Positions 1 to 60,466 of a stretch of DNA of 64,000 bases are shown here, piece after piece. How positions within the stretch are numbered: position 1 is the first letter of the stretch; the number at the start of each line of letters is the position of its first letter. Source of the DNA: Muricea muricata (Eukaryota > Cnidaria > Anthozoa > Malacalcyonacea > Plexauridae). Below the pieces are notes generated by a model. The model did no database searches, was not told the origin of the DNA, and was given only the letters and a program-made list of their open reading frames with translations. Both the position numbers and the translations under genes were made by a program. The DNA is taken from assembly GCA_963855995.1 (NCBI GenBank), contig OY979731.1, forward strand, positions 5,302,942-5,366,941, read 5' to 3'.

Positions 1-324
1 CACGGCGACGTTTTAAAGCTTAAAATAATGTTTTCAGTGCTAAAGTGAACGAGTTGAGCGCAATGATGTACTGCAATGACGGTTCTAAAAAAAGACCTTC
101 TAATTTGATATTGCAGAACTTAGCAAGTCGGGAATCATGTTTTTGGCGCTCAAACCATCGAGATGACCGTAACAACATGTTGAAATGTGAAACCTATAAC
201 TTGCTTGTACACTGAAAAGAAACGACCTTAGAACCATCAAAATCGCGTTTTAAGCGCTCAAAAAGCGATTTGAGCGTAAAAACATGCTCAAATCACCAAC
301 TAAAAATTGCTATCTTAAATCGAC

Positions 325-647
325 CACGGCGACGTTTTAGAGCTTAAAATGGTGTTTTTAGTGCTAGAACGAACGAGTTGAGCGCAATGATGTACTGCAA
401 TCAGGGACCTAAAAGAGACCTTCTAAATGGAAATTGCAGAACTTACCAAGTCGGGAATCATGATTTCGGCGCTCAAACCATCGAGATGAATGACACAACA
501 TGTTGAAATGAGAAACCTATAACTTTCTTGTAAACTGAAAAGAAACGATCTTAGAACCATCAAAATCGCGTTTTAAGCGTTCTAGAAGCGATTTTAGCGG
601 GAAAACATGCTCAAATCACTAAGTAAAAATTGCCGTCTTAAATCGAT
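325..647 (+). repeat. Representative 323-bp satellite monomer
   Basis: One full unit chosen as reference. From the start it contains CACGGCGACG, then GAGTTGAGCGC near unit position 52, AAGTCGGGAATCATG near 125, CGGCGCTCAAACCATCGAGA near 144, CAACATGTTG near 173, AACCTATAACTT near 189, ATCGCGTTTTAAGCG near 241, and a pair of TTTGAGC/GCTCAAA-type arms near 270-295 that can form a hairpin in many copies. The motif TTGAGCG or its complement appears at three or more places in the unit. I count 18 CpG dinucleotides. It resembles no transposon, rRNA, tRNA or snRNA gene that I know. Confidence 0.95.
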
Positions 648-1242
648 CACATCGACGTTTTACAGCTTAAAATGCGGTTTTTAGTGCTAAAGTGAACGAG
701 TTGAGCGCAATGATGTACTGCAATGACGGTTCTAAAAAAAGACCTTCTAATTTGATATTGCAGAACTTAGCAAGTCGGGAATCATGTTTTTGGCGCTCAA
801 ACCATCGAGATGACCGAAAAAACATGTTGAAATGTGAAACCTATAACTTGCTTGTAAACTCAAAAGAAACGACCTTAGAACCATCAAAATCTCGTTTTAA
901 GCGTTCTAAAAGCGATTTGAGCGTAAAAACATGCTCAAATCACCAACTAAAAATTGCTATCTTAAATCGACCACGGCGACGTTTTAAAGCTTAAAATGGT
1001 GTTTTTAGTGCTAGAACGAACGAGTTGAGCGCAATGATGTACTGCAATGACGGATCTTAAAAAAGACCTTCTAATTTGATATTGCAGAACTTAGCAAGTC
1101 GGGAATCATGTTTTCGGCGCTCAAACCATCGAGATGACCGAAACAACATGTTGAAATGTGAAACCTATAACTTGCTTGTAAACTGAAAAGAAACGACCTT
1201 AGAATCATCAAAATCGCGTTTTAAGCGTTCTAGAAGGAATTT

Positions 1243-1270
1243 GAGCGTGAAAACATGCTCAAATCACCAA
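1243..1270. repeat. Example of the intra-monomer TTTGAGC/GCTCAAA hairpin
   Basis: AATTTGAGCGTG, AAAA, CATGCTCAAAT forms a stem with an AAAA loop: TTTGAGC pairs with GCTCAAA, one G-T wobble follows, then TG pairs with CA. In the commonest variants, such as GATTTGAGC...GCTCAAATC (2853-2880), the stem begins with 9 perfect pairs. T1-flanking units have GTTAAAATC and lose it. It occurs once per monomer in many subtypes, about 25 bp before the unit end. Confidence 0.6.
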
Positions 1271-1618
1271 CTTAAAATTGCCGTCTTAAATCGACCACGG
1301 CGACGTTTTAGAGCTTAAAATGGTGTTTTTAGTCCTATAGTGAACGAGTTGAGCGCAATGATGTGCTGCAATCACGGACCTAAAACAGACCTTCTAAATG
1401 GAATTTGCAGAACTTACCAAGTCGGGAATCATGATTTGGGCGCTCAAACCATCGAGATGAATGAAAAAACATGTTGAAATGAGAAACCTATAACTTGCTT
1501 GTAAACTGAAAAGAAACGATCTTAGAACCATCAAAATCGCGTTTTAAGCGTTCTAGAAGCAATTTGAGCGTGAAAACATGTTAAAATCACTAACTAAAAA
1601 TTGCCGTCTTAAATCGAT

Positions 1619-1942
1619 CACATCGACGTTTTACAGCTTGAAATGCTGTTTTCAGTGCTAAAGTGAACGAGTTGAGCGCAATGATGTACTGCAATGACGG
1701 TTCTAAAAAAAGACCTTCTAATTTGATATTGCAGAACTTAGCAAGTCGGGAATCATGTTTTCGGCGCTCAAACCATCGAGATGACCGAAACAACATGTTG
1801 AAATGTGAAACCTATAACTTGCTTGTACACTGAAAAGAAACGACCTTAGAACCTTTAAAATCGCGTTTTAAGCCTTCTAAAAGCGATTTGAGCGTAAAAA
1901 CATGTTCAAATAACTAACTATAAATTGCCGTCTTAAATCGAT
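1619..1942 (+). repeat. Subtype T1 monomer (marker of HOR register)
   Basis: A monomer subtype identified by CACATCGACGTTTTACAGC followed by TTGAAATGCTG, the segment ACGGTTCTAAAAAAAGACC, and GCTTGTACACTG near the middle. It is the subtype that stays open on the minus strand over 66-69 codons. T1 units start at about 1619, 3881, 5499, 7761, 9055, 10998, 12931, 14222, 15515, 18423, 20364, 26459, 30016, 32602, 34863, 35829, 36802, 39063, 40029, 41324, 43910, 46171, 47137, 49725, 51986, 52952, 55217, 56183, 58767, 61032, 62649 and 63943. Their spacing is always a whole number of monomers, most often 3, 4, 7 or 8, and exposes the HOR structure. Confidence 0.9.
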
Positions 1943-4900
1943 AACGGTGACGTTTTACAGCTTAAAATGGTGTTTTCAGTGCTAAAGTGAACGAGTTGAG
2001 CGCAATGATGTACTGCAATCACGGATCTGAAAGAGGCCTTCTAAATGGATATTGCAGAACTTAGCAAGTCGGGAATCATGTTTTCTGCGCTCAAACCATC
2101 GAGAAGAGCGAAACAACATGTTGAAATGAGAAACCTATAATTTGCTTGTAAACTGAAAAGAAAAAATCTTAGAACCATCAAAATCGCGTTTTAAGCGTTC
2201 TAGAAGCGATTTTAGCGTGAAAACATACTCAAATCAATACCAAAAATTGCCGTCTTAAATCGATCACGGCGACGTTTTAAAGCTTAAAATAATGTTTTCA
2301 GTGCTAAAGTGAACGAGTTGAGCGCAATGATGTACTGCAATCACGGACCTAAAAGAGACCTTCTAAATGGAAATTGAAGAACTTAGCAAGTCGGCAATCA
2401 TGTTTTCGGCGCTCAAACCATCGAGATGAATGAAACAACATGTTGAAATGAGAAACCTATAACTTGCTTGTAAACTGAAAAGAAACGATCTTAGAAGCAT
2501 CAAAATCGCGTTTTTAGCGTTCTAAAAGCGATTTGAGAGTAAAAAGATACTCAAATCACCACCTAAAAATTGCCGTCTTAAATCGATCACGGCGACGTTT
2601 TAGAGCTTAAAATAATGTTTTCAGTGCTAAAGTGAACGAGTTTAGCGCAATGATGTACTGCAATCACGGACCTAAAAGAGACCTTCTAAATGGAATTTGC
2701 AGAACTTAGCAAGTCGGGAATCATGTTTTCGGCGCTCAAACTATCGAGATGACCGAAATAACATGTTGAAATGAGAAACCTATAACTTGCTTGTAAACTA
2801 AAAAGAAACGACCTTAGAACCATCAAAATCGCGTTTTAAGCGCTCAAAAAGCGATTTGAGCGTAAAAACATGCTCAAATCACCAACTAAAAATTGCTATC
2901 TTAAATCGACCACGGCGACGTTTTAGAGCTTAAAATGGTGTTTTTAGTGCTAGAACGAACGAGTTGAGTGCAATGATGTACTGCAATCAGGGACCTAAAA
3001 GAGACCTTCTAAATGGAAATTGCAGAACTTACCAAGTCGGGAATCATGATTTCGGCGCTCAAACCATCGAGATGAATGACACAACATGTTGAAATGAGAA
3101 ACCTATAACTTTCTTGTAAACTGAAAAGAAACGATCTTAGAAGCATCAAAATCGCGTTTTAAGCGTTCTAGAAGCGATTTGAGCGGGAAAACATGCTCAA
3201 ATCACTAACTAAAAATTGCCGTCTTAAATCGATCACATCGACGTTTTACAGCTTAAAATGCTGTTTTCAGTGCTAAAGTGAACGAGTTGAGCGCAATGAT
3301 GTACTGCAATGACGGATCTTAAAAAAGACCTTCTAATTTGATATTCCAGAACTTAGCAAGTCGGGAATCATGTTTTCGGCGCTCAAACCATCGAGATGAC
3401 CGAAACAACATGTTGAAATGTGAAACCTATAACTTGCTTGTAAACAGAAAAGAAACGACCTTAGAACCATCAAAATCGCGTTTTAAGCGTTCTAGAAGGA
3501 ATTTGAGCGTGAAAACATGCTCAAATCACCAACTTAAAATTGCCGTCTTAAATCGACCACGGCGACGTTTTAGAGCTTAAAATGGTGTTTTTAGTCCTAT
3601 AGTGAACGAGTTGAGCGCAATGATGTACTGCAATCACGGACCTAAAACAGACCTTCTAAATGGAATTTGCAGAACTTACCAAGTCGGGAATCATGATTTC
3701 GGCGCTCAAACAATCGAGATGAATGAAAAAACATGTTGAAATGAGAAACCTATAACTTGCTTGTAAACTGAAAAGAAACGATCTTAGAACCATCAAAATC
3801 GCGTTTTAAGCGTTCTAGAAGCAATTTGAGCGTGAAAACATGTTACAATCACTAACTAAAAATTGCCGTCTTAAATCGATCACATCGACGTTTTACAGCT
3901 TGAAATGCTGTTTTCAGTGCTAAAGTGAACGAGTTGAGCGCAATGATGTACTGCAATGACGGTTCTAAAAAAAGACCTTCTAATTTGATATTGCAGAACT
4001 TAGCAAGTCGGGAATCATGTTTTTGGCGCTCAAACCATCGAGATGACCGTAACAACATGTTGAAATGTGAAACCTATAACTTGCTTGTACACTGAAAAGA
4101 AACGACCTTAGAACCATCAAAATCGCGTTTTAAGCGCTCAAAAAGCGATTTGAGCGTAAAAACATGCTCAAATCACCAACTAAAAATTGCTATCTTAAAT
4201 CGACCACGGCGACGTTTTAGAGCTTAAAATGGTGTTTTTAGTGCTAGAACGAACGAGTTGAGCGCAATGATGTACTGCAATCAGGGACCTAAAAGAGACC
4301 TTCTAAATGGAAATTGCAGAACTTACCAAGTCGGGAATCATGATTTCGGCGCTCAAACCATCGAGATGAATGACACAACATGTTGAAATGAGAAACCTAT
4401 AACTTTCTTGTAAACTGAAAAGAAACGATCTTAGAACCATCAAAATCGCGTTTTAAGCGTTCTAGAAGCGATTTTAGCGGGAAAACATGCTCAAATCACT
4501 AAGTAAAAATTGCCGTCTTAAATCGATCACATCGACGTTTTACAGCTTAAAATGCGGTTTTTAGTGCTAAAGTGAACGAGTTGAGCGCAATGATGTACTG
4601 CAATGACGGTTCTAAAAAAAGACCTTCTAATTTGATATTGCAGAACTTAGCAAGTCGGGAATCATGTTTTTGGCGCTCAAACCATCGAGATGACCGAAAA
4701 AACATGTTGAAATGTGAAACCTATAACTTGCTTGTAAACTCAAAAGAAACGACCTTAGAACCATCAAAATCTCGTTTTAAGCGTTCTAAAAGCGATTTGA
4801 GCGTAAAAACATGCTCAAATCACCAACTAAAAATTGCTATCTTAAATCGACCACGGCGACGTTTTAAAGCTTAAAATGGTGTTTTTAGTGCTAGAACGAA

Positions 4901-7900
4901 CGAGTTGAGCGCAATGATGTACTGCAATGACGGATCTTAAAAAAGACCTTCTAATTTGATATTGCAGAACTTAGCAAGTCGGGAATCATGTTTTCGGCGC
5001 TCAAACCATCGAGATGACCGAAACAACATGTTGAAATGTGAAACCTATAACTTGCTTGTAAACTGAAAAGAAACGACCTTAGAATCATCAAAATCGCGTT
5101 TTAAGCGTTCTAGAAGGAATTTGAGCGTGAAAACATGCTCAAATCACCAACTTAAAATTGCCGTCTTAAATCGACCACGGCGACGTTTTAGAGCTTAAAA
5201 TGGTGTTTTTAGTCCTATAGTGAACGAGTTGAGCGCAATGATGTGCTGCAATCACGGACCTAAAACAGACCTTCTAAATGGAATTTGCAGAACTTACCAA
5301 GTCGGGAATCATGATTTGGGCGCTCAAACCATCGAGATGAATGAAAAAACATGTTGAAATGAGAAACCTATAACTTGCTTGTAAACTGAAAAGAAACGAT
5401 CTTAGAACCATCAAAATCGCGTTTTAAGCGTTCTAGAAGCAATTTGAGCGTGAAAACATGTTAAAATCACTAACTAAAAATTGCCGTCTTAAATCGATCA
5501 CATCGACGTTTTACAGCTTGAAATGCTGTTTTCAGTGCTAAAGTGAACGAGTTGAGCGCAATGATGTACTGCAATGACGGTTCTAAAAAAAGACCTTCTA
5601 ATTTGATATTGCAGAACTTAGCAAGTCGGGAATCATGTTTTCGGCGCTCAAACCATCGAGATGACCGAAACAACATGTTGAAATGTGAAACCTATAACTT
5701 GCTTGTACACTGAAAAGAAACGACCTTAGAACCATCAAAATCGCGTTTTAAGCCTTCTAAAAGCGATTTGAGCGTAAAAACATGTTCAAATAACTAACTA
5801 TAAATTGCCGTCTTAAATCGATAACGGTGACGTTTTACAGCTTAAAATGGTGTTTTCAGTGCTAAAGTGAACGAGTTGAGCGCAATGATGTACTGCAATC
5901 ACGGATCTGAAAGAGGCCTTCTAAATGGATATTGCAGAACTTAGCAAGTCGGGAATCATGTTTTCTGCGCTCAAACCATCGAGAAGAGCGAAACAACATG
6001 TTGAAATGAGAAACCTATAATTTGCTTGTAAACTGAAAAGAAAAAATCTTAGAACCATCAAAATCGCGTTTTAAGCGTTCTAGAAGCGATTTTAGCGTGA
6101 AAACATACTCAAATCAATACCAAAAATTGCCGTCTTAAATCGATCACGGCGACGTTTTAAAGCTTAAAATAATGTTTTCAGTGCTAAAGTGAACGAGTTG
6201 AGCGCAATGATGTACTGCAATCACGGACCTAAAAGAGACCTTCTAAATGGAAATTGAAGAACTTAGCAAGTCGGCAATCATGTTTTCGGCGCTCAAACCA
6301 TCGAGATGAATGAAACAACATGTTGAAATGAGAAACCTATAACTTGCTTGTAAACTGAAAAGAAACGATCTTAGAAGCATCAAAATCGCGTTTTTAGCGT
6401 TCTAAAAGCGATTTGAGAGTAAAAAGATACTCAAATCACCACCTAAAAATTGCCGTCTTAAATCGATCACGGCGACGTTTTAGAGCTTAAAATAATGTTT
6501 TCAGTGCTAAAGTGAACGAGTTTAGCGCAATGATGTACTGCAATCACGGACCTAAAAGAGACCTTCTAAATGGAATTTGCAGAACTTAGCAAGTCGGGAA
6601 TCATGTTTTCGGCGCTCAAACTATCGAGATGACCGAAATAACATGTTGAAATGAGAAACCTATAACTTGCTTGTAAACTAAAAAGAAACGACCTTAGAAC
6701 CATCAAAATCGCGTTTTAAGCGCTCAAAAAGCGATTTGAGCGTAAAAACATGCTCAAATCACCAACTAAAAATTGCTATCTTAAATCGACCACGGCGACG
6801 TTTTAGAGCTTAAAATGGTGTTTTTAGTGCTAGAACGAACGAGTTGAGTGCAATGATGTACTGCAATCAGGGACCTAAAAGAGACCTTCTAAATGGAAAT
6901 TGCAGAACTTACCAAGTCGGGAATCATGATTTCGGCGCTCAAACCATCGAGATGAATGACACAACATGTTGAAATGAGAAACCTATAACTTTCTTGTAAA
7001 CTGAAAAGAAACGATCTTAGAAGCATCAAAATCGCGTTTTAAGCGTTCTAGAAGCGATTTGAGCGGGAAAACATGCTCAAATCACTAACTAAAAATTGCC
7101 GTCTTAAATCGATCACATCGACGTTTTACAGCTTAAAATGCTGTTTTCAGTGCTAAAGTGAACGAGTTGAGCGCAATGATGTACTGCAATGACGGATCTT
7201 AAAAAAGACCTTCTAATTTGATATTCCAGAACTTAGCAAGTCGGGAATCATGTTTTCGGCGCTCAAACCATCGAGATGACCGAAACAACATGTTGAAATG
7301 TGAAACCTATAACTTGCTTGTAAACAGAAAAGAAACGACCTTAGAACCATCAAAATCGCGTTTTAAGCGTTCTAGAAGGAATTTGAGCGTGAAAACATGC
7401 TCAAATCACCAACTTAAAATTGCCGTCTTAAATCGACCACGGCGACGTTTTAGAGCTTAAAATGGTGTTTTTAGTCCTATAGTGAACGAGTTGAGCGCAA
7501 TGATGTACTGCAATCACGGACCTAAAACAGACCTTCTAAATGGAATTTGCAGAACTTACCAAGTCGGGAATCATGATTTCGGCGCTCAAACAATCGAGAT
7601 GAATGAAAAAACATGTTGAAATGAGAAACCTATAACTTGCTTGTAAACTGAAAAGAAACGATCTTAGAACCATCAAAATCGCGTTTTAAGCGTTCTAGAA
7701 GCAATTTGAGCGTGAAAACATGTTACAATCACTAACTAAAAATTGCCGTCTTAAATCGATCACATCGACGTTTTACAGCTTGAAATGCTGTTTTCAGTGC
7801 TAAAGTGAACGAGTTGAGCGCAATGATGTACTGCAATGACGGTTCTAAAAAAAGACCTTCTAATTTGATATTGCAGAACTTAGCAAGTCGGGAATCATGT

Positions 7901-8579
7901 TTTTGGCGCTCAAACCATCGAGATGACCGTAACAACATGTTGAAATGTGAAACCTATAACTTGCTTGTACACTGAAAAGAAACGACCTTAGAACCATCAA
8001 AATCGCGTTTTAAGCGCTCAAAAAGCGATTTGAGCGTAAAAACATGCTCAAATCACCAACTAAAAATTGCTATCTTAAATCGACCACGGCGACGTTTTAG
8101 AGCTTAAAATGGTGTTTTTAGTGCTAGAACGAACGAGTTGAGCGCAATGATGTACTGCAATCAGGGACCTAAAAGAGACCTTCTAAATGGAAATTGCAGA
8201 ACTTACCAAGTCGGGAATCATGATTTCGGCGCTCAAACCATCGAGATGAATGACACAACATGTTGAAATGAGAAACGTATAACTTTCTTGTAAACTGAAA
8301 AGAAACGATCTTAGAACCATCAAAATCGCGTTTTAAGCGTTCTAGAAGCGATTTTAGCGGGAAAACATGCTCAAATCACTAAGTAAAAATTGCCGTCTTA
8401 AATCGATCACATCGACGTTTTACAGCTTAAAATGCGGTTTTTAGTGCTAAAGTGAACGAGTTGAGCGCAATGATGTACTGCAATGACGGTTCTAAAAAAA
8501 GACCTTCTAATTTGATATTGCAGAACTTAGCAAGTCGGGAATCATGTTTTTGGCGCTCAAACCATCGAGATGACCGAAA

Positions 8580-11500
8580 CAACATGTTGAAATGTTAAAC
8601 CTATAACTTGCTTGTACACTGAAAAGAAACGACCTTAGAACCATCAAAATCGCGTTTTAAGCGTTCTAGAAGTAATTTGAGCGTGAAAACATGCTCAAAT
8701 CACCAACTAAATATTGCCGTTTTAAATCGACCACGGCGACGTTTTAGAGCTTAAAATAGTGTTTTTAGTGCTAGAGTGAATGAGTTGAGCACAATCATGT
8801 ACTGTAATCACGGACCTAAAAGAGACCTTCTAAATGGAATTTGCAGAACTTAATAAGTCGGGAATCATGATTTCGGCGCTCAAACCATCGAGATGAATGA
8901 AAAAACATGTTGAAATGAGAAACCTATAACTTGCTTGTAAACTGAAAAGAAACGATCTTAGAACCATCAAAATCGCGTTTTAAGCGTTCTAGAAGCAATT
9001 TGAGCGTGAAAACATGTTAAAATCACTAACTAAAAATTGCCGTCTTAAATCGATCACATCGACGTTTTACAGCTTGAAATGCTGTTTTCAGTGCTAAAGT
9101 GAACGAGTTGAGCGCAATGATGTACTGCAATGACGGTTCTAAAAAAAGACCTTCTAATTTGATATTGCAGAACTTAGGAAGTCGGGAATCATGTTTTTGG
9201 CGCTCAAACCATCGAGATGACCGAAACAACATGTTGAAATGTGAAACCTATAACTTGCTTGTACACTGAAAAGAAACGACCTTAGAACCATCAAAATCGC
9301 GTTTTAAGCGTTCTAGAAGTAATTTGAGCGTGAAAACATGCTCAAATCACCAACTAAAAATTGCCGTTTTAAATCGACCACGGCGACGTTTTAGACCTTA
9401 AAATGGTGTTTTTAGTGCTAGAGTGAATGAGTTGAGCACAATCATGTACTGTAATCACGGACCTAAAAAAGACTTTCTAAATGGAATTTGCAGAACTTAG
9501 CAAGTCGGGAATCATGTTTTAGGAGCTCAAACCATCGAGATGACCGAAACAACATGTTGAAATGTGAAACCTATAACTTGCTTGTAAACTGAAAAGAAAC
9601 GATCTTAGAACCATAAACGTCGCGTTTTAAGCCTTCTAGAAGCGATTTGAGCGTGAAAACATGCTCAAATCACTAACTAAAAATTTCCGTCTTAAATCGA
9701 TCACGGCGACGTTTTACAGCTTAAAATGCGGTTTTCAGTGCTAAAGTGAACGAGTTGAGCGCAATGATGTACTGCAATCACGGATCTAAAAGAGACCTTC
9801 TAAATGGATATTGCAGAACTTAGCAAGTCGAGAATCATGTTTACGGCGGTCAAACCATCGAGATGACCGAAACAACATGTTGAAATGTGAAACCTATAAC
9901 TTGCTTGTAAACTCAAAAGAAACGACCTTAGAACCATCAAAATCGCGTTTTAAGCGTGCTAAAAGCGATTTGAGCGTAAAAACATGCTCAAATCACCAAC
10001 AAAAAATTGCCGTCTTAAATCGATCACGGCGACGTTTTAAAGCTTAAAATAATGTTTTCAGTGCTAAAGTGAACGAGTTGAGCGCAATGATGTACTGCAA
10101 TCACGGACCTAAAAGAGACCTTCTAAATGGAAATTGCAGAACTTAGCAAGTCGGCAATCATGTTTTCGGCGCTCAAACCATCGAGATGAATGAAACAACA
10201 TGTTGAAATGAGAAACCTATAACTTGCTTGTAAACTGAAAAGAAACGATCTTAGAAGCATCAAAATCGCATTTTAAGCGTTCTAAAAGCGATTTGAGAGT
10301 AAAAACATACTCAAATCACCACCTAAAAATTGCCGTCTTAAATCGATCACGGCGACGTTTTACAGCTTAAAATAATGTTTTCAGTGCTAAAGTGAACGAG
10401 TTTAGCGCAATGATGTACTGCAATCACGGACCTAAAAGAGACCTTCTAAATGGAATTTGCAGAACTTAGCAAGTCGGGAATCATGTTTTCGGCGCTCAAA
10501 CCATCGAGAAGACCGAAACAACATGTTGAAATGTGAAACCTATAACTTGCTTGTAAACTGAAACGAAACGACCTTAGAACCATAAAAATCGCGTTTTAAG
10601 CGTTCTAGAAGGAATTTGAGCGTGAAAAAATGCTCAAATCACCAACTTAAAATTGCCGTCTTAAATCGACCACGGCGACGTTTTAGAGCTTAAAATGGTG
10701 TTTTTAGTCCTATAGTGAACGAGTTGAGCGCAATGATGTACTGCAATCACGGACCTAAAAGAGACCTTCTAAATGGAATTTGCAGAACTTACCAAGTCGG
10801 GAATCATGATTTCGGCGCTCAAACCATCGAGATGAATGAAAAAACATGTTGAAAGGAGAAACCTATAACTTGCTTGTAAACTGAAAAGAAACGATCTTAG
10901 AACCATCAAAATCGCGTTTTAAGCGTTCTAGAAGCAATTTGAGCGTGAAAACATGTTAAAATCACTAATTAAATTGCCGTCTTAAATCGATCACATCCAC
11001 GTTTTACAGCTTGAAATGCTGTTTTCAGTGCTAAAGTGAACGAGTTGAGCGCAATGATGTACTGCAATGACGGTTCTAAAAAAAGACCTTCTAATTTGAT
11101 ATTGCAGAACTTAGCAAGTCGGGAATCATGTTTTTGGCGCTCAAACCATCGAAATGAGCGAAATAACATGTTGAAATGAGAAACCCATAACTTGCTTGTA
11201 AACTGAAAAGAAACGATCTTAGAACCATCAAAGTCGCGTTTTAAGCGTTCTAGAAGCGATTTGAGCGGGAAAACATGCTCAAATCACTAACTAAAAATTG
11301 CCGTCTTAAATCGATCACATCGACGTTTTACAGCTTAAAATGCTGTTTTCAGTGCCAAAGTGAACGAGTTGAGCGCAATGATGTACTGTAATCACGGACC
11401 TAAAAGAGACCTTCTAAATGGAATTTGCAGAACTTACCAAGTCGGGAATCATGTTTTTGGCGCTCAAACCATCGAGATGACCGAAACAACATGTTGAAAT

Positions 11501-19700: not shown

Positions 19701-20673
19701 GCCGTCTTAAATCGATCACATCGACGTTTTACAGCTTGAAATCCTGTTTTCAGTGCTAAAGTGAACGAGTTGAGCGCAATGATGTACTGCAATGACGGAT
19801 CTTAAAAAAGACCTTCTAATTTGATATTGCAGAACTTAGCAAGTCGGGACTCATGTTTTCGGCGCTCAAACCATCGAGATGACCGAAACAACATGTTGAA
19901 ATGTGAAGCCTATAACTTGCTTGTAAACTGAAAAGAAACGACCTTAGAACCATCAAAATCGCGTTTTAAGCGTTCTAGAAGGAATTTGAGCGTGAAAACA
20001 TGCTCAAATCACCAACTTAAAATTGCCGTCTTAAATCGACCACGGCGACGTTTTAGAGCTTAAAATGGTGTTTTTAGTCCTATAGTGAACGAGTTGAGCG
20101 CAATGATGTACTGCAATCACGGACCTAAAACACACCTTCTAAATGGAATTTGCAGAACTTACCAAGTCGGGAATCATGATTTGGGCGCTCAAACCATCGA
20201 GATGAATGAAAAAACATGTTGAAATGAGAAACCTATAACTTGCTTGTAAACTGAAAAGAAACGATCTTAGAACCATCAAAATCGCGTTTTAAGCGTTCTA
20301 GAAGCAATTTGAGCGTGAAAACATGTTAAAATCACTAACTAAAAATTGCCGTCTTAAATCGATCACATCGACGTTTTACAGCTTGAAATGCTGTTTTCAG
20401 TGCTAAAGTGAACGAGTTGAGCGCAATGATGTACTGCAATGACGGTTCTAAAAAAAGACCTTCTAATTTGATATTGCAGAACTTAGCAAGTCGGGAATCA
20501 TGTTTTTGGCGCTCAAACCATCGAGATGACCGAAACAACATGTTGAAATGTGAAACCTATAACTTGCTTGTACACTGAAAAGAAACGACCTTAGAACCAT
20601 CAAAATCGCGTTTTAAGCGTTCTAGAAGTAATTTGAGCGTGAAAACATGCTCAAATCACCAACTAAAAATTGC
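16760..20673 (+). repeat. 6-monomer higher-order repeat, 1,941 bp, two copies
   Basis: Copy 1 (16760-18700) and copy 2 (18701-20673) match at a 1,941-bp offset. Shared private variants include GGGACTCATG, TTACAAGCATC, a TTTATAGAAC variant and ACACACCTTC, in the same order. One difference is AATCCTG near 19741 against AATGCTG near 17800. The match ends at 20674, where copy 2 reads TTGCCGTTTT and copy 1 reads TTGCTATCTT. Confidence 0.88.
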
Positions 20674-20827
20674 CGTTTTAAATCGACCACGGCGACGTTT
20701 TAGAGCTTAAAATGGTGTTTTTAGTGCTAGAGTGAATGAGTTGAGCACAATCATGTACTGTAATCACGGACCTAAAAAAGACTTTCTAAATGGAATTTGC
20801 AGAACTTAGCAAGTCGGGAATCATGTT

Positions 20828-40286: not shown

Positions 40287-41233
40287 CTTCTAAAAGCGAT
40301 TTGAGCGTAAAAACATGTTCAAATAACTAACTATAAATTGCCGTCTTAAATCGATAACGGTGACGTTTTACAGCTTAAAATGGTGTTTTCAGTGCTAAAG
40401 TGAACGAGTTGAGCGCAATGATGTACTGCAATCACGGATCTGAAAGAGGCCTTCTAAATGGATATTGCAGAACTTAGCAAGTCGGGAATCATGTTTTCTG
40501 CGCTCAAACCATCGAGAAGAGCGAAACAACATGTTGAAATGAGAAACCTATAATTTGCTTGTAAACTGAAAAGAAAAAATCTTAGAACCATCAAAATCGC
40601 GTTTTAAGCGTTCTAGAAGCGATTTTAGCGTGAAAACATACTCAAATCACCACCAAAAATTGCCGTCTTAAATCGATCACGGCGACGTTTTAAAGCTTAA
40701 AATAATGTTTTCAGTGCTAAAGTGAACGAGTTGAGCGCAATGATGTACTGCAATCACGGACCTAAAAGAGACCTTCTAAATGGAATTTGCAGAACTTAGC
40801 AAGTCGGGAATCATGTTTTCGGCGCTCAAACCATCGAGATGACCGAAATAACATGTTGAAATGAGAAACCTATAACTTGCTTGTAAACTCAAAAGAAACG
40901 ACCTTAGAACCATCAAAATCGCGTTTTAAGCGCTCAAAAAACGATTTGAGCGTAAACACATGCTCAAATCACCAACTAAAAATTGCTATCTTAAATCGAC
41001 CACGGCGACGTTTTAGAGCTTAAAATGGTGTTTTTAGTGCTAGAACGAACGAGTTGAGTGCAATGATGTACTGCAATCAGGGACCTAAAAGAGACCTTCT
41101 AAATGGAAATTGCAGAACTTACCAAGTCGGGAATCATGATTTCGGCGCTCAAACCATCGAGATGAATGACACAACATGTTGAAATGAGAAACCTATAACT
41201 TTCTTGTAAACTGAAAAGAAACGATCTTACAAG

Positions 41234-47200: not shown

Positions 47201-47394
47201 AATGATGTACTGCAATGACGGTTCTAAAAAAAGACCTTCTAATTTGATATTGCAGAACTTAGCAAGTCGGGAATCATGTTTTCGGCGCTCAAACCATCGA
47301 GATGACCGAAACAACATGTTGAAATGTGAAACCTATAACTTGCTTGTACACTGAAAAGAAACGACCTTAGAACCATCAAAATCGCGTTTTAAGC
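41234..47394 (+). repeat. 6.16-kb duplicated segment, copy 2 (partner at 29926-36086)
   Basis: Second copy of the long-range duplication. Private changes include AACTCAAAAG near 41858, CACTAACTA near 41940 where copy 1 has CACTAGCTA, and GCAAGGATGT near 45260. Between the two copies lies material of the 13-monomer repeat, so the duplication predates or accompanies the 4,200-bp expansion. Confidence 0.85.
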
Positions 47395-50300: not shown

Positions 50301-53300
50301 GCGTTCTGGAAGCGATTTGAGAGTAAAAACATACTCAAATCACCACCTAAAAATTGCCGTCTTAAATCGATCACGGCGACGTTTTAAAGCTTAAATAATG
50401 TTTTCAGTGCTAAAGTGAACGAGTTGAGCGCAATGATGTACTGCAATCACGGACCTAAAAGAGACATTCTAAATGGAATTTGCACAACTTAGCAATTCGG
50501 AAATCATGTTTTCGGCGCTCAAACCATCGAGATGAGCGAAACAACATGTTGAATGAGAAACCTATAACTTGATTGTAAACTGAAAAGAAACGATCTTAGA
50601 AGCATCAAAATCGCGTTTTAAGCGTTCTAAAAGCGATTTGAGAGTAAAAAGATACTCAAATCACCACCTAAAAATTGCCGTCTTAAATCGATCACGGCGA
50701 CGTTTTAAAGCTTAAAATAATGTTTTCAGTGCTAAAGTGAACGAGTTTAGCGCAATGATGTACTGCAATCACGGACCTAAAAGAGACCTTCTAAATGGAA
50801 TTTGCAGAACTTAGCAAGTCGGGAATCATGTTTTCGGCGCTAAAACCATCGAGACTAGCGAAATAACATGTTGAAATGAGAAACCTATAACTTGCTTGTA
50901 AACTCAAAAGAAACGACCTTAGAACCATCAAAATCGCGTTTTAAGCGCTCAAAAAGGGATTTGAGCGTAAAAACATGCTCAAATCACCAACTAAAAATTG
51001 CTATCTTAAATCGACCACGGCGACGTTTTAGGGCTTAAAATGGTGTTTTTAGTGCTAGAACGAACGAGTTGAGCGCAAGGATGTACTGCAATCAGGGACC
51101 TAAAAGAGACCTTCTAAATGGAAATTGCAGAACTTACCAAGTCGGGAATCATGATTTCGGCGCTCAAACCATCGAGATGAATGACACAACATGTTGAAAT
51201 GAGAAACCTATAACTTTCTTGTAAACTGAAAAGAAACGATCTTACAAGCATCAAAATCGCGTTTTAAGCGTTCTAGAAGCGATTTGAGCGGGAAAACATG
51301 CTCAAATCACTAACTAAAAATTGCCGTCTTAAATCGATCACATCGACGTTTTACAGCTTAAAATGCTGTTTTCAGTGCTAAAGTGAACGAGTTGAGCGCA
51401 ATGATGTACTGCAATGACGGATCTTAAAAAAGACCTTCTAATTTGATATTGCAGAACTTAGCAAGTCGGGACTCATGTTTTCGGCGCTCAAACCATCGAG
51501 ATGACCGAAACAACATGTTGAAATGTGAAGCCTATAACTTGCTTGTAAACTGAAAAGAAACGACCTTAGAACCATCAAAATCGCGTTTTAAGCGTTCTAG
51601 AAGGAATTTGAGCGTGAAAACATGCTCAAATCACCAACTTAAAATTGCCGTCTTAAATCGACCACGGCGACGTTTTAGAGCTTAAAATGGTGTTTTTAGT
51701 CCTATAGTGAACGAGTTGAGCGCAATGATGTACTGCAATCACGGACCTAAAACAGACCTTCTAAATGGAATTTGCAGAACTTACCAAGTCGGGAATCATG
51801 ATTTGGGCGCTCAAACCATCGAGATGAATGAAAAAACATGTTGAAATGAGAAACCTATAACTTGCTTGTAAACTGAAAAGAAACGATCTTAGAACCATCA
51901 AAATCGCGTTTTAAGCGTTCTAGAAGCAATTTGAGCGTGAAAACATGTTAAAATCACTAACTAAAAATTGCCGTCTTAAATCGATCACATCGACGTTTTA
52001 CAGCTTGAAATGCTGTTTTCAGTGCTAAAGTGAACGAGTTGAGCGCAATGATGTACTGCAATGACGGTTCTAAAAAAAGACCTTCTAATTTGATATTGCA
52101 GAACTTAGCAAGTCGGGAATCATGTTTTCGGCGCTCAAACCATCGAGATGACCGAAACAACATGTTGAAATGTGAAACCTATAACTTGCTTGTACACTGA
52201 AAAGAAACGACCTTAGAACCATCAAAATCGCGTTTTAAGCCTTCTAAAAGCGATTTGAGCGTAAAAACATGTTCAAATAACTAACTATAAATTGCCGTCT
52301 TAAATCGATAACGGTGACGTTTTACAGCTTAAAATGGTGTTTTCAGTGCTAAAGTGAACGAGTTGAGCGCAATGATGTACTGCAATCACGGATCTGAAAG
52401 AGGCCTTCTAAATGGATATTGCAGAACTTAGCAAGTCGGGAATCATGTTTTCTGCGCTCAAACCATCGAGAAGAGCGAAACAACATGTTGAAATGAGAAA
52501 CCTATAATTTGCTTGTAAACTGAAAAGAAAAAATCTTAGAACCATCAAAATCGCGTTTTAAGCGTTCTAGAAGCGATTTTAGCGTGAAAACATACTCAAA
52601 TCACCACCAAAAATTGCCGTCTTAAATCGATCACGGCGACGTTTTAAAGCTTAAAATAATGTTTTCAGTGCTAAAGTGAACGAGTTGAGCGCAATGATGT
52701 ACTGCAATCACGGACCTAAAAGAGACCTTCTAAATGGAAATTGAAGAACTTAGCAAGTCGGCAATCATGTTTTCGGCGCTCAAACCATCGAGATGAATGA
52801 AACAACATGTTGAAATGAGAAACCTATAACTTGCTTGTAAACTGAAAAGAAACGATCTTAGAACCATCAAAATCGCGTTTTAAGCGTTCTAAAAGCGATT
52901 TGAGAGTAAAAAGATACTCAAATCACCACCTAAAAATTGCCGTCTTAAATCGATCACATCGACGTTTTACAGCTTGAAATGCTGTTTTCAGTGCTAAAGT
53001 GAACGAGTTGAGCGCAATGATGTACTGCAATGACGGTTCTAAAAAAAGACCTTCTAATTTGATATTGCAGAACTTAGCAAGTCGGGAATCATGTTTTCGG
53101 CGCTCAAACCATCGAGATGACCGAAACAACATGTTGAAATGTGAAACCTATAACTTGCTTGTACACTGAAAAGAAACGACCTTAGAACCATCAAAATCGC
53201 GTTTTAAGCCTTCTAAAAGCGATTTGAGCGTAAAAACATGTTCAAATAACTAACTATAAATTGCCGTCTTAAATCGATAACGGTGACGTTTTACAGCTTA

Positions 53301-55094
53301 AAATGGTGTTTTCAGTGCTAAAGTGAACGAGTTGAGCGCAATGATGTACTGCAATCACGGATCTGAAAGAGGCCTTCTAAATGGATATTGCAGAACTTAG
53401 CAAGTCGGGAATCATGTTTTCTGCGCTCAAACCATCGAGAAGAGCGAAACAACATGTTGAAATGAGAAACCTATAATTTGCTTGTAAACTGAAAAGAAAA
53501 AATCTTAGAACCATCAAAATCGCGTTTTAAGCGTTCTAGAAGCGATTTTAGCGTGAAAACATACTCAAATCACCACCAAAAATTGCCGTCTTAAATCGAT
53601 CACGGCGACGTTTTAAAGCTTAAAATAATGTTTTCAGTGCTAAAGTGAACGAGTTGAGCGCAATGATGTACTGCAATCACGGACCTAAAAGAGACCTTCT
53701 AAATGGAAATTGAAGAACTTAGCAAGTCGGCAATCATGTTTTCGGCGCTCAAACCATCGAGATGAATGAAACAACATGTTGAAATGAGAAACCTATAACT
53801 TGCTTGTAAACTGAAAAGAAACGATCTTAGAAGCATCAAAATCGCGTTTTAAGCGTTCTAAAAGCGATTTGAGAGTAAAAAGATACTCAAATCACCACCT
53901 AAAAATTGCCGTCTTAAATCGATCACGGCGACGTTTTAGAGCTTAAAATAATGTTTTCAGTGCTAAAGTGAACGAGTTTAGCGCAATGATGTACTGCAAT
54001 CACGGACCTAAAAGAGACCTTCTAAATGGAATTTGCAGAACTTAGCAAGTCGGGAATCATGTTTTCGGCGCTCAAACCATCGAGATGACCGAAATAACAT
54101 GTTGAAATGAGAAACCTATAACTTGCTTGTAAACTCAAAAGAAACGACCTTAGAACCATCAAAATCGCGTTTTAAGCGCTCAAAAAACGATTTGAGCGTA
54201 AACACATGCTCAAATCACCAACTAAAAATTGCTATCTTAAATCGACCACGGCGACGTTTTAGAGCTTAAAATGGTGTTTTTAGTGCTAGAACGAACGAGT
54301 TGAGTGCAATGATGTACTGCAATCAGGGACCTAAAAGAGACCTTCTAAATGGAAATTGCAGAACTTACCAAGTCGGGAATCATGATTTCGGCGCTCAAAC
54401 CATCGAGATGAATGACACAACATGTTGAAATGAGAAACCTATAACTTTCTTGTAAACTGAAAAGAAACGATCTTACAAGCATCAAAATCGCGTTTTAAGC
54501 GTTCTAGAAGCGATTTGAGCGGGAAAACATGCTCAAATCACTAACTAAAAATTGCCGTCTTAAATCGATCACATCGACGTTTTACAGCTTAAAATGCTGT
54601 TTTCAGTGCTAAAGTGAACGAGTTGAGCGCAATGATGTACTGCAATGACGGATCTTAAAAAAGACCTTCTAATTTGATATTGCAGAACTTAGCAAGTCGG
54701 GACTCATGTTTTCGGCGCTCAAACCATCGAGATGACCGAAACAACATGTTGAAATGTGAAGCCTATAACTTGCTTGTAAACTGAAAAGAAACGACCTTAG
54801 AACCATCAAAATCGCGTTTTAAGCGTTCTAGAAGGAATTTGAGCGTGAAAACATGCTCAAATCACCAACTTAAAATTGCCGTCTTAAATCGACCACGGCG
54901 ACGTTTTAGAGCTTAAAATGGTGTTTTTAGTCCTATAGTGAACGAGTTGAGCGCAATGATGTACTGCAATCACGGACCTAAAACAGACCTTCTAAATGGA
55001 ATTTGCAGAACTTACCAAGTCGGGAATCATGATTTGGGCGCTCAAACCATCGAGATGAATGAAAAAACATGTTGAAATGAGAAACCTATAACTT
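43436..55094 (+). repeat. 18-monomer higher-order repeat, 5,815 bp, two copies
   Basis: Copy 1 is 43436-49250 and copy 2 is 49251-55094. T1 units at 43910, 46171 and 47137 recur at 49725, 51986 and 52952. Differences seen include AAGTAACTTG near 44173 against AAGTAATTTG, and AAGTCAGGAATC near 45971 against AAGTCGGGAATC. Identity ends at 55095, where ACTTGCTTGT replaces ACTTTCTTTT. Confidence 0.9.
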
Positions 55095-57882
55095 GCTTGT
55101 AAACTGAAAAGAAACGATCTTAGAACCATCAAAATCGCGTTTTAAGCGTTCTAGAAGCAGTTTGAGCGTGAAAACATGTTAAAATCACTAACTAAAAATT
55201 GCCGTCTTAAATCGATCACATCGACGTTTTACAGCTTGAAATGCTGTTTTCAGTGCTAAAGTGAACGAGTTGAGCGCAATGATGTACTGCAATGACGGTT
55301 CTAAAAAAAGACCTTCTAATTTGATATTGCAGAACTTAGCAAGTCGGGAATCATTTTTTCGGCGCTCAAACCATCGAGATGACCGAAACAACATGTTGAA
55401 ATGTGAAACCTATAACTTGCTTGTACACTGAAAAGAAACGACCTTAGAACCATCAAAATCGCGTTTTAAGCCTTCTAAAAGCGATTTGAGCGTAAAAACA
55501 TGTTCAAATAACTAACTATAAATTGCCGTCTTAAATCGATAACGGTGACGTTTTACAGCTTAAAATGGTGTTTTCAGTGCTAAAGTGAACGAGTTGAGCG
55601 CAATGATGTACTGCAATCACGGATCTGAAAGAGGCCTTCTAAATGGATATTGCAGAACTTAGCAAGTCGGGAATCATGTTTTCTGCGCTCAAACCATCGA
55701 GAAGAGCGAAACAACATGTTGAAATGAGAAACCTATAATTTGCTTGTAAACTGAAAAGAAAAAATCTTAGAACCATCAAAATCGCGTTTTAAGCGTTCTA
55801 GAAGCGATTTTAGCGTGAAAACATACTCAAATCACCACCAAAAATTGCCGTCTTAAATCGATCACGGCGACGTTTTAAAGCTTAAAATAATGTTTTCAGT
55901 GCTAAAGTGAACGAGTTGAGCGCAATGATGTACTGCAATCACGGACCTAAAAGAGACCTTCTAAATGGAAATTGAAGAACTTAGCAAGTCGGCAATCATG
56001 TTTTCGGCGCTCAAACCATCGAGATGAATGAAACAACATGTTGAAATGAGAAACCTATAACTTGCTTGTAAACTGAAAAGAAACGATCTTAGAACCATCA
56101 AAATCGCGTTTTAAGCGTTCTAAAAGCGATTTGAGAGTAAAAAGATACTCAAATCACCACCTAAAAATTGCCGTCTTAAATCGATCACATCGACGTTTTA
56201 CAGCTTGAAATGCTGTTTTCAGTGCTAAAGTGAACGAGTTGAGCGCAATGATGTACTGCAATGACGGTTCTAAAAAAAGACCTTCTAATTTGATATTGCA
56301 GAACTTAGCAAGTCGGGAATCATGTTTTCGGCGCTCAAACCATCGAGATGACCGAAACAACATGTTGAAATGTGAAACCTATAACTTGCTTGTACACTGA
56401 AAAGAAACGACCTTAGAACCATCAAAATCGCGTTTTAAGCCTTCTAAAAGCGATTTGAGCGTAAAAACATGTTCAAATAACTAACTATAAATTGCCGTCT
56501 TAAATCGATAACGGTGACGTTTTACAGCTTAAAATGGTGTTTTCAGTGCTAAAGTGAACGAGTTGAGCGCAATGATGTACTGCAATCACGGATCTGAAAG
56601 AGGCCTTCTAAATGGATATTGCAGAACTTAGCAAGTCGGGAATCATGTTTTCTGCGCTCAAACCATCGAGAAGAGCGAAACAACATGTTGAAATGAGAAA
56701 CCTATAATTTGCTTGTAAACTGAAAAGAAAAAATCTTAGAACCATCAAAATCGCGTTTTAAGCGTTCTAGAAGCGATTTTAGCGTGAAAACATACTCAAA
56801 TCACCACCAAAAATTGCCGTCTTAAATCGATCACGGCGACGTTTTAAAGCTTAAAATAATGTTTTCAGTGCTAAAGTGAACGAGTTGAGCGCAATGATGT
56901 ACTGCAATCACGGACCTAAAAGAGACCTTCTAAATGGAAATTGAAGAACTTAGCAAGTCGGCAATCATGTTTTCGGCGCTCAAACCATCGAGATGAATGA
57001 AACAACATGTTGAAATGAGAAACCTATAACTTGCTTGTAAACTGAAAAGAAACGATCTTAGAAGCATCAAAATCGCGTTTTAAGCGTTCTAAAAGCGATT
57101 TGAGAGTAAAAAGATACTCAAATCACCACCTAAAAATTGCCGTCTTAAATCGATCACGGCGACGTTTTAGAGCTTAAAATAATGTTTTCAGTGCTAAAGT
57201 GAACGAGTTTAGCGCAATGATGTACTGCAATCACGGACCTAAAAGAGACCTTCTAAATGGAATTTGCAGAACTTAGCAAGTCGGGAATCATGTTTTCGGC
57301 GCTCAAACCATCGAGATGACCGAAATAACATGTTGAAATGAGAAACCTATAACTTGCTTGTAAACTCAAAAGAAACGACCTTAGAACCATCAAAATCGCG
57401 TTTTAAGCGCTCAAAAAACGATTTGAGCGTAAACACATGCTCAAATCACCAACTAAAAATTGCTATCTTAAATCGACCACGGCGACGTTTTAGAGCTTAA
57501 AATGGTGTTTTTAGTGCTAGAACGAACGAGTTGAGTGCAATGATGTACTCCAATCAGGGACCTAAAAGAGACCTTCTAAATGGAAATTGCAGAACTTACC
57601 AAGTCGGGAATCATGATTTCGGCGCTCAAACCATCGAGATGAATGACACAACATGTTGAAATGAGAAACCTATAACTTTCTTGTAAACTGAAAAGAAACG
57701 ATCTTACAAGCATCAAAATCGCGTTTTAAGCGTTCTAGAAGGGATTTGAGCGGGAAAACATGCTCAAATCACTAACTAAAAATTGCCGTCTTAAATCGAT
57801 CACATCGACGTTTTACAGCTTAAAATGCTGTTTTCAGTGCTAAAGTGAACGAGTTGAGCGCAATGATGTACTGCAATGACGG
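51080..57882 (+). repeat. 10-monomer higher-order repeat, 3,231 bp, about 2.1 copies
   Basis: Copy 1 is 51080-54310 and copy 2 with overhang is 54311-57882. T1 units at 51986 and 52952 recur at 55217 and 56183. Copy 2 carries single-base changes such as GCAGTTTG near 55158, CATTTTTTC near 55352 and TACTCCAATC near 57548. The match ends at 57883 (ACGGTTCT against ACGGATCTT), inside a chimeric monomer. This block overlaps the 18-mer block, so the periods are nested. Confidence 0.88.
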
Positions 57883-60466
57883 TTCTAAAAAAAGACCTTC
57901 TAATTTGATATTGCAGAACTTAGCAAGTCGGGAATCATGTTTTCGGCGCTCAAACCATCGAGATGACCGAAACAACATGTTGAAATGTGAAACCTATAAC
58001 TTGCTTGTACACTGAAAAGAAACGACCTTAGAACCATCAAAATCGCGTTTTAAGCCTTCTAAAAGCGATTTGAGCGTAAAAACATGTTCAAATAACTAAC
58101 TATAAATTGCCGTCTTAAATCGATAACGGTGACGTTTTACAGCTTAAAATGGTGTTTTCAGTGCTAAAGTGAACGAGTTGAGCGCAATGATGTACTGCAA
58201 TCACGGATCTGAAAGAGGCCTTCTAAATGGATATTGCAGAACTTAGCAAGTCGGGAATCATGTTTTCTGCGCTCAAACCATCGAGAAGAGCGAAACAACA
58301 TGTTGAAATGAGAAACCTATAATTTGCTTGTAAACTGAAAAGAAAAAATCTTAGAACCATCAAAATCGCGTTTTAAGCGTTCTAGAAGCGATTTTAGCGT
58401 GAAAACATACTCAAATCACCACCAAAAATTGCCGTCTTAAATCGATCACGGCGACGTTTTAAAGCTTAAAATAATGTTTTCAGTGCTAAAGTGAACGAGT
58501 TGAGCGCAATGATGTACTGCAATCACGGACCTAAAAGAGACCTTCTAAATGGAAATTGAAGAACTTAGCAAGTCGGCAATCATGTTTTCGGCGCTCAAAC
58601 CATCGAGATGAATGAAACAACATGTTGAAATGAGAAACCTATAACTTGCTTGTAAACTGAAAAGAAACGATCTTAGAACCATCAAAATCGCGTTTTAAGC
58701 GTTCTAAAAGCGATTTGAGAGTAAAAAGATACTCAAATCACCACCTAAAAATTGCCGTCTTAAATCGATCACATCGACGTTTTACAGCTTGAAATGCTGT
58801 TTTCAGTGCTAAAGTGAACGAGTTGAGCGCAATGATGTACTGCAATGACGGTTCTAAAAAAAGACCTTCTAATTTGATATTGCAGAACTTAGCAAGTCGG
58901 GAATCATGTTTTCGGCGCTCAAACCATCGAGATGACCGAAACAACATGTTGAAATGTGAAACCTATAACTTGCTTGTACACTGAAAAGAAACGACCTTAG
59001 AACCATCAAAATCGCGTTTTAAGCCTTCTAAAAGCGATTTGAGCGTAAAAACATGTTCAAATAACTAACTATAAATTGCCGTCTTAAATCGATAACGGTG
59101 ACGTTTTACAGCTTAAAATGGTGTTTTCAGTGCTAAAGTGAACGAGTTGAGCGCAATGATGTACTGCAATCACGGATCTGAAAGAGGCCTTCTAAATGGA
59201 TATTGCAGAACTTAGCAAGTCGGGAATCATGTTTTCTGCGCTCAAACCATCGAGAAGAGCGAAACAACATGTTGAAATGAGAAACCTATAATTTGCTTGT
59301 AAACTGAAAAGAAAAAATCTTAGAACCATCAAAATCGCGTTTTAAGCGTTCTAGAAGCGATTTTAGCGTGAAAACATACTCAAATCACCACCAAAAATTG
59401 CCGTCTTAAATCGATCACGGCGACGTTTTAAAGCTTAAAATAATGTTTTCAGTGCTAAAGTGAACGAGTTGAGCGCAATGATGTACTGCAATCACGGACC
59501 TAAAAGAGACCTTCTAAATGGAAATTGAAGAACTTAGCAAGTCGGCAATCATGTTTTCGGCGCTCAAACCATCGAGATGAATGAAACAACATGTTGAAAT
59601 GAGAAACCTATAACTTGCTTGTAAACTGAAAAGAAACGATCTTAGAAGCATCAAAATCGCGTTTTAAGCGTTCTAAAAGCGATTTGAGAGTAAAAAGATA
59701 CTAAAATCACCACCTAAAAATTGCCGTCTTAAATCGATCACGGCGACGTTTTAGAGCTTAAAATAATGTTTTCAGTGCTAAAGTGAACGAGTTTAGCGCA
59801 ATGATGTACTGCAATCACGGACCTAAAAGAGACCTTCTAAATGGAATTTGCAGAACTTAGCAAGTCGGGAATCATGTTTTCGGCGCTCAAACCATCGAGA
59901 TGACCGAAATAACATGTTGAAATGAGAAACCTATAACTTGCTTGTAAACTCAAAAGAAACGACCTTAGAACCATCAAAATCGCGTTTTAAGCGCTCAAAA
60001 AACGATTTGAGCGTAAACACATGCTCAAATCACCAACTAAAAATTGCTATCTTAAATCGACCACGGCGACGTTTTAGAGCTTAAAATGGTGTTTTTAGTG
60101 CTAGAACGAACGAGTTGAGTGCAATGATGTACTGCAATCAGGGACCTAAAAGAGACCTTCTAAATGGAAATTGCAGAACTTACCAAGTCGGGAATCATGA
60201 TTTCGGCGCTCAAACCATCGAGATGAATGACACAACATGTTGAAATGAGAAACCTATAACTTTCTTGTAAACTGAAAAGAAACGATCTTAGAAGCATCAA
60301 AATCGCGTTTTAAGCGTTCTAGAAGCGATTTGAGCGGGAAAACATGCTCAAATCACTAACTAAAAATTGCCGTCTTAAATCGATCACATCGACGTTTTAC
60401 AGCTTAAAATGCTGTTTTCAGTGCTAAAGTGAACGAGTTGAGCGCAATGATGTACTGCAATGACGG
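55239..60466 (+). repeat. 8-monomer higher-order repeat, 2,584 bp, two copies
   Basis: Copy 1 is 55239-57822 and copy 2 is 57823-60466. The junction falls within the chimeric monomer starting at 57801, whose first bases are of the CACATC...CTTAAAATGCTG subtype and whose remainder is T1. The T1 unit at 56183 corresponds to 58767. A private change in copy 2 is GATACTAAAATC near 59699. Confidence 0.87.

What the first reader, a model, noticed from the sequence alone, without database searches (positions are those of the whole stretch)
29..60466. Seven nested higher-order repeat periods in one array
Fixed-offset matching reveals HORs of 12, 6, 9, 13, 18, 10 and 8 monomers (3,880, 1,941, 2,910, 4,200, 5,815, 3,231 and 2,584 bp), several overlapping. 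HORs are best known from primate alpha satellite; so many competing registers within 60 kb suggest an array caught in rapid unequal-exchange turnover.
Basis: seen in the sequence. Interest (0 to 1): 0.7.

Follow-up and report, generated by a model that had tools for sequence, protein, structure and literature searches.

The report
Satellite array with overlapping block duplications

Summary
The window is one 323-bp satellite (186 full monomers measured) with one 3.18-kb transposon-like insert. All seven claimed offsets are real block duplications at 99.4-99.95% identity, far beyond chance. The list is incomplete: 11-mer (3557 bp) and 3-mer (969 bp) duplications also occur, and 22, 28, 35, 40 and 53 are longer-range relations. 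'HOR' overstates it: each period is mainly one duplication in two or three copies, not an iterated unit as in alpha satellite. Offsets are whole monomers, as unequal exchange or break-induced replication would leave. 'Caught in rapid turnover' is only partly supported: copies are young (cores 0.04-0.37% apart), but a neutral duplication/deletion simulation gives 1-10 coexisting periods per window, and tandem periods occur elsewhere in the array. The array spans about 927 kb in the middle of an 11.6-Mb contig, so it is a candidate centromere; there are no CENP-A data, and other chromosomes could not be tested. Parallels are published for Drosophila, poplar and Arabidopsis. New member of a known kind; modest interest.

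The parts
1..20830 (+). 323-bp satellite array, left part, head to tail
   Evidence: Tandem Repeats Finder 1-20829; monomer anchors
20831..24012 (.). 3182-bp insert with 35-bp terminal inverted repeats (33 of 35 identical), flanked by a TTA target-site duplication (20828-20830 and 24013-24015); no listed ORF above 107 aa in it; PIF/Harbinger-like non-autonomous element (class label recalled, no family search made)
   Evidence: empty partner site with one TTA at offset 6095
24013..64000 (+). 323-bp satellite array, right part, continues beyond the window
29..8579 (+). 12-monomer duplication, offset 3880 bp (29-4699 vs 3909-8579), 3 mismatches
   Evidence: further matches upstream on C16
16760..20673 (+). 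6-monomer tandem duplication, offset 1941 bp, 1 mismatch
18701..28488 (+). 9-monomer duplication, offset 2910 bp (6095 bp across the insert); only the left copy carries the insert
24888..32351 (+).
31607..40286 (+). 13-monomer tandem duplication, offset 4200 bp, 10 mismatches
29926..47394 (+). 35-monomer relation, offset 11308 bp (35 = 13 + 22), 11 mismatches in 6161 bp
43309..55094 (+). 18-monomer tandem duplication, offset 5815 bp, 6 mismatches; a second 5815-bp relation (51951-55354 vs 57766-61169) equals 10 + 8
50859..58055 (+). 10-monomer tandem duplication, offset 3231 bp, 15 mismatches
55182..60593 (+). 8-monomer tandem duplication, offset 2584 bp, 8 mismatches
46146..48111 (+). 3-monomer tandem duplication, offset 969 bp, 1 mismatch; found again at 51961, 55192 and 57776, inside the larger blocks

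Best explanation
The window is a piece of a roughly 927-kb satellite array, most likely the centromeric or pericentromeric array of this chromosome, in an animal genome. The 323-bp monomer (itself showing a 108-bp sub-period) is copied in blocks of 2 to 18 monomers by out-of-register exchange between near-identical repeats: unequal sister-chromatid exchange or break-induced replication. Each exchange leaves one in-register tandem duplication; later exchanges copy or cut earlier ones, giving overlapping periods and sum relations such as 18 = 10 + 8 and 35 = 13 + 22. The competing periods are therefore the expected standing pattern of a satellite under random block duplication and deletion with mutation, not seven HOR families. 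Shown: the duplications, their lengths, whole-monomer offsets and identity, and the array's sampled extent and mid-contig position. Inferred: the exchange mechanism, centromere function, and that later exchanges re-copied earlier ones.
For: Register: 186 of 187 anchor intervals are 321-324 bp; the other, 3508 bp, holds the insert. Offsets are whole monomers. Junctions: the aligned segment is longer than its offset for the 3, 6, 8, 10, 11, 12, 13 and 18 (by 28, 32, 244, 735, 350, 791, 280 and 156 bp), as homologous in-register exchange predicts. Content: 31 monomer types at a 2% cut-off, 18 of them recurring; tandem duplications account for 83 of 186 monomers in either removal order, as 9 or 12 events. 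Age: core divergence 0.04-0.37%, pooled 40 of 33,852 bp over ten block pairs. Standing pattern: neutral simulations give 3.5-4.9 periods of 4 or more monomers per window on average, range 1-10, in 96 windows; 24 windows over a wider mutation range gave 2-7. Spread: tandem periods in 15 of 20 sampled stretches outside the window. Place: satellite in all 22 ten-kb stretches fetched, first base C16:4,983,119 and last 5,909,941 of 11,597,501 (the leftmost stretches are partly other sequence); none at four 1-kb probes outside; TTAGGG repeats at the right contig end; the right edge is more diverged, 89-90% to consensus.
Against: No simulation setting fits every statistic: where mean identity matches (about 0.913; observed 0.916), partners at 99% or more are too common (98% against 85%), and at higher mutation mean identity falls too low; long-range homogenisation or a recent common origin is needed as well, and I did not verify that the simulations had reached equilibrium after 60,000 events. 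Junction overlaps partly rest on segment ends with clustered mismatches: free of those clusters the 8 and 11 cores are shorter than their offsets, and another caller gives the 11 a segment shorter than its offset (3457 of 3557 bp). The 9 is split by the insert and was not measured so; the 12 is cut by the window edge. Mean identity is flat with distance in the window and neighbours 1-5 apart are slightly the least alike. No CENP-A, read, methylation, FISH or second-haplotype data. No excess of CENP-B-box-like sites (5 with up to 2 mismatches, 108 expected); weak folding of the one monomer tested (z -1.39). Other chromosomes were not tested: the genome search did not answer in a usable way.
Confidence: 0.75

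Rival explanations
1. Assembly artefact: the assembler placed both haplotypes or repeated read paths in tandem, creating the near-identical blocks.
For: Eight of ten block pairs have similar, low core divergence (under 0.15%), as misplaced haplotype copies could have; no reads were available to test it.
Against: Ten tandem block sizes (2, 3, 6, 8, 9, 10, 11, 12, 13, 18) that overlap and are partly re-copied need successive events; the insert is in one copy only, beside an empty partner site; tandem periods occur across the array and on contig C19; blocks of 1-6 kb are within reach of ordinary long reads (recalled).
Confidence: 0.12
2. Break-induced replication, rather than reciprocal unequal exchange, makes the blocks: a collapsed fork re-invades an out-of-register copy behind it and re-copies a block.
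For: A review describes this as a proposal for nested HOR structures (PMC8997354, passages). Duplications of 6-18 monomers prevail in the window, and pairs 1-5 monomers apart are least often near-identical (2.6% against 5.6-6.4% at 6-20).
Against: Both mechanisms leave the same in-register tandem duplication; nothing here separates them.
Confidence: 0.4
3. A recent burst: the array or this domain was amplified in a short time, so the periods mark an unusual phase.
For: The window exceeds most samples in near-identical partners (mean 0.75 of monomers at 99% or more in seven 30-monomer blocks, range 0.33-0.93, against 0.45 in 20 samples, range 0-0.81); most block pairs are near 0.1% diverged; 7 periods lie in the upper part of the simulated range (6 of 96 windows reach 7).
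Against: Still inside the neutral range; three samples (L017, L019, L021) reach 0.79-0.81; core divergences are heterogeneous (p = 0.003), though the 11-mer holds 12 of the 40 differences.
Confidence: 0.25

Closest known systems
Drosophila ananassae-subgroup pericentromeric satellite arrays (PMC11917152, passages read)
   Same: Long arrays (up to 2 Mb) of 99-411-bp monomers with higher-order structure, rarely interrupted by transposons, in putative centromeric regions.
   Different: Sequences not compared; no block-level duplication map was read there.
Poplar Palv156 and Arabidopsis CEN178 centromeric satellites (PMC12046899, passages read; the Arabidopsis paper tried is not held)
   Same: Centromeric monomers organised into HORs; homogenisation mostly within a chromosome; transposon invasion.
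   Different: Shorter monomers (156 and 178 bp by name); in poplar similarity falls with distance, here mean identity is flat up to about 120 kb and only the near-identical class falls.
Human alpha-satellite HOR arrays (mostly recalled; PMC8997354, passages)
   Same: Blocks of distinct monomers copied as units; layers of different age.
   Different: There one HOR is iterated many times (recalled); here each period exists in about two or three copies; no excess of CENP-B-box-like sites.
Tribolium madens (peri)centromeric satellites with macro-dyad symmetry (PMC13081366, outline and passages)
   Same: An ancestral unit of about 110 bp inside larger units; orientation switches in the arrays.
   Different: Switches there are frequent and conserved in sequence; here three were located in the sampled stretches and their junctions differ by eye.

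Membership tests
Satellite DNA (long head-to-tail tandem array) | Head-to-tail monomers in a long array | tested here: met
   188 anchors, 323-bp monomer; array about 927 kb as sampled
Higher-order repeat array (alpha-satellite type) | Multi-monomer unit copied with much higher identity than between its monomers | tested here: met
   Blocks 99.4-99.95% alike against 91.6% mean between monomers
Higher-order repeat array (alpha-satellite type) | One unit iterated many times head to tail | tested here: not met
   Each period mainly one duplication, two to three copies; the 12-mer has a few more matches upstream
Centromere | Binds CENP-A / kinetochore | not testable with these tools
   No chromatin data
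Centromere | One large array at one place on each chromosome | tested here: inconclusive
   C16 array at 43-51% of the contig, four outside probes negative; the rest of C16 and the other chromosomes were not scanned (unscored, later requests unanswered)
Centromere with CENP-B boxes | CENP-B box in monomers | tested here: not met
   5 matches at up to 2 mismatches, three of them in the insert, against 108 expected by chance
PIF/Harbinger-type non-autonomous DNA transposon (the insert) | Terminal inverted repeats and a 3-bp TTA/TAA target duplication (recalled) | tested here: met
   35-bp inverted repeats, TTA on both sides, empty partner site with one TTA
PIF/Harbinger-type non-autonomous DNA transposon (the insert) | Ends related to an autonomous element of that superfamily | not tested
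   The request for other copies of the insert did not complete

The most novel reading that the evidence does not exclude
The array is a working metacentric centromere of an early-branching animal that keeps no fixed HOR and is renewed by short-lived block copies of 2-18 monomers, while near-identical blocks also lie on opposite strands about 500 kb apart (15 monomers, 99.8%, C16:5204817 and 5707300), so that inversion or inverted copying within the array also spreads blocks.
Probability: 0.3. Interest if true: 0.45.

Novelty: new member of a known kind. Interest (0 to 1): 0.3.

Why it matters
The sequence keeps single exchange events readable: block sizes, junctions, and an insertion that post-dates one duplication. 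It could serve as a test case for unequal exchange against break-induced replication outside primates and plants. By itself it agrees with a known process.

Tried and rejected
HOR arrays of the alpha-satellite kind: rejected because run lengths show mainly one duplication per period.

A chronology from differing divergences of the blocks: raw values (0.05-0.61%) look like different ages, but mismatches cluster at segment ends in several blocks; trimmed cores are 0.04-0.37%, so no fine order of events is claimed beyond the insert following the 9-mer duplication.

A strand palindrome of the whole array: the nine near-identical inverted runs found between sampled stretches do not share one centre.

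CENP-B boxes and strong secondary structure (one monomer folded, 10 of 100 shuffles folded as well): not found. CpG decay: weak at most (C>T 0.051 at CpG against 0.047 elsewhere, G>A 0.055 against 0.043 per site per monomer).

Literature: searches for a 323-bp satellite (0 and 2 papers), for cnidarian, sea-anemone or HOR centromere satellites (48, 534, 115 and 0 papers, at most 20 listed each) and for the genome by size and chromosome number (4 papers) showed, among the titles and abstract starts listed, no description of this array; the papers listed there were not read unless named here. Searches were listings used to find comparisons. PMC12448946 (tunicate genome, passages) was looked at as a possible source and dropped. 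The species was not identified. The genome carries a GFP-family coding piece and TTAGGG ends, which suggests a cnidarian or another GFP-bearing animal (taxon range recalled).

A first monomer extraction over all sampled stretches found only 248 monomers because of the search setting and was replaced (750 monomers). One search used 20 of the 21 stretches then held; L010 (12 monomers) was left out, and L055 was fetched later.

Full report
What was checked. The window is C16:5302942-5366941 of a genome of 453,007,491 bases in 74 contigs. It is one 323-bp satellite: 188 anchors give 187 intervals, of which 186 are 321-324 bp and one is 3508 bp because of an insert. Mean pairwise identity of the 186 monomers is 0.916. 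The consensus has a 108-bp sub-period: 46.7% self-match at offset 108 against a maximum of 36.8% in 500 shuffles.

The seven periods are real. Base-level comparison finds each at the stated length; coordinates are in the parts list. Identity of the called segments at the seven claimed offsets is 99.6-99.95%, and 99.4% for the left half of the 9-mer, which is shifted by the insert. Offsets of 22, 28, 35, 40 and 53 monomers are longer-range relations, several of them sums (28 = 18 + 10, 35 = 13 + 22, 53 = 35 + 18), as is the second 18 (10 + 8). Order of monomer types is far from random: longest run 18, permuted maximum 6 in 300; 83 of 186 monomers are removed as tandem duplications against 7-20 in 15 permutations. 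The two removal orders tried give 9 or 12 events but the same 83 monomers.

What they are. For the 3, 6, 8, 10, 11, 12, 13 and 18 the aligned segment is longer than the offset, so the copies abut: tandem duplications, with junctions in register, as exchange between homologous monomers leaves. Caveats: the segment caller runs on into ends with clustered mismatches; without those clusters the 8 and 11 fall short of their offsets, and the 11 does too (3457 of 3557 bp), so the junctions of these two are less sure. The 12 is cut by the window edge and the 9 is split by the insert. The type string shows a few recurrent words (4 5; 6 7; 8 9 10; 21 22 25 10) combined in many ways.

The insert. A 3182-bp element with 35-bp inverted ends sits in a TTA duplication; the partner copy of the 9-mer block has the same flanks and a single TTA. 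So the insertion followed that duplication. No ORF above 107 aa is listed in it (no protein search was made). Pieces of it resemble the genome locus L009 on C1 (94.7% over 207 bp and 78.7% over 136 bp); its copy number was not measured, because the search did not complete.

Age. Trimmed cores of ten block pairs (the 22 and 35 relations included, the 9-mer by its right half only) differ at 40 of 33,852 positions; single values 0.038-0.374%, heterogeneity p = 0.003, with the 11-mer holding 12 of the 40. Of 186 monomers, 127 have a partner in the window without difference in the aligned columns, 42 one at 99% or more, 10 at 97-99%, 4 at 95-97% and 3 below.

Is it special? I simulated random duplication and deletion of blocks (geometric lengths, about 1000 monomers, 60,000 events) with mutation. 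A first set of 24 windows over a wide mutation range held 2-7 periods; in a second set of 96 windows, 1-10 periods of 4 or more monomers coexisted, 41 of 96 windows had 5 or more and 6 of 96 had 7 or more. The real window has 7 by the same measure, in which the 9-mer is missed because the interrupted monomer was left out. No setting fits all statistics together: at the setting that matches mean identity the model has too many near-identical neighbours (98% against 85% at 99% or more). The model is illustrative, not fitted, and equilibrium was not verified. Elsewhere in the array, 15 of 20 sampled 10-kb stretches have a tandem period and 7 of 20 one of 4 or more monomers; 10-kb pieces cannot show the longest periods, and short ones have no permutation control. 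Window blocks have on average 0.75 of monomers with a partner at 99% or more (0.33-0.93 in seven blocks) against 0.45 in samples (0-0.81). The window is on the active side but not unique.

Surroundings. All 22 ten-kb stretches fetched between 4.98 and 5.91 Mb hold the satellite, the first base at 4,983,119 and the last at 5,909,941; the leftmost are partly other sequence; 1-kb probes at 4.90, 4.94, 5.93 and 5.98 Mb have none. That is 43-51% of an 11.6-Mb contig whose right end carries TTAGGG repeats. In the sampled stretches strand switches lie at 4,984,321, 5,011,642 and 5,396,643-5,396,749, the last with about 105 bp of non-satellite between; others may lie unsampled. The right edge is more diverged (89-90% to consensus). 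About 500 kb apart and on opposite strands, 15 consecutive monomers agree at 99.8%, and opposite-strand pairs at 400-600 kb are more often near-identical (0.66%) than same-strand pairs at 250-400 kb (0.09%). Contig C19 (59 kb; 6 kb read) has a 297-bp relative, 75-79% identical in the longer matches: the first 2 kb repeat at 1187 bp (four monomers, 99.9%), the 2 kb near the far end at 1189 and 1486 bp (98%), and the middle 2 kb show no such period.

How it probably works. The review read in passages (PMC8997354) sets out both candidate mechanisms: unequal exchange (Smith 1976) and break-induced replication (Rice 2020), the second proposed for nested structures. The data here cannot separate them. 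Function as a centromere is inferred from size, mid-contig position and a more diverged edge; HORs alone do not prove it, since non-centromeric arrays in poplar have them too (PMC12046899, passages).

Verdict. Observation confirmed; interpretation partly supported; ordinary satellite biology in an unidentified animal. New member of a known kind.

Noticed in passing
C16:5204817 (L017) and 5707300 (L026): Fifteen consecutive monomers, 99.8% identical, on opposite strands about 500 kb apart; several sampled domains on the plus-strand side have near-identical monomers on the minus-strand side.
   Followed up: partly
C16:4984321, 5011642, 5396643-5396749: Three orientation switches of the satellite in the sampled stretches; the last has about 105 bp of non-satellite sequence at the turn.
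   Followed up: partly
L049, L056, L057 (contig C19): A sibling 297-bp satellite, 75-79% identical to the window's, 97-99% alike between three places on its contig, with a 1187-bp 4-mer period at one end, 1189/1486-bp periods near the other and none in the middle sample.
   Followed up: partly
L011:1-3200 and L010:7130-8020: By eye, pieces of non-LTR retrotransposons with short tandem tails interrupt the satellite at the left edge of the array.
   Followed up: no
contigs C1-C3 against C4-C16: Three giant contigs (124, 72 and 61 Mb) beside thirteen of 11.6-19.2 Mb (19 of 74 contigs looked at), suggesting fusions or mis-joins.
   Followed up: no
L009:1720-1950 (minus strand): A GFP-family coding piece (best PDB match E 1.2e-14) on C1; pieces resembling the window's insert lie in the same locus.
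   Followed up: partly
window, monomer consensus: The 323-bp unit shows a 108-bp sub-period, so it may be an old trimer.
   Followed up: partly
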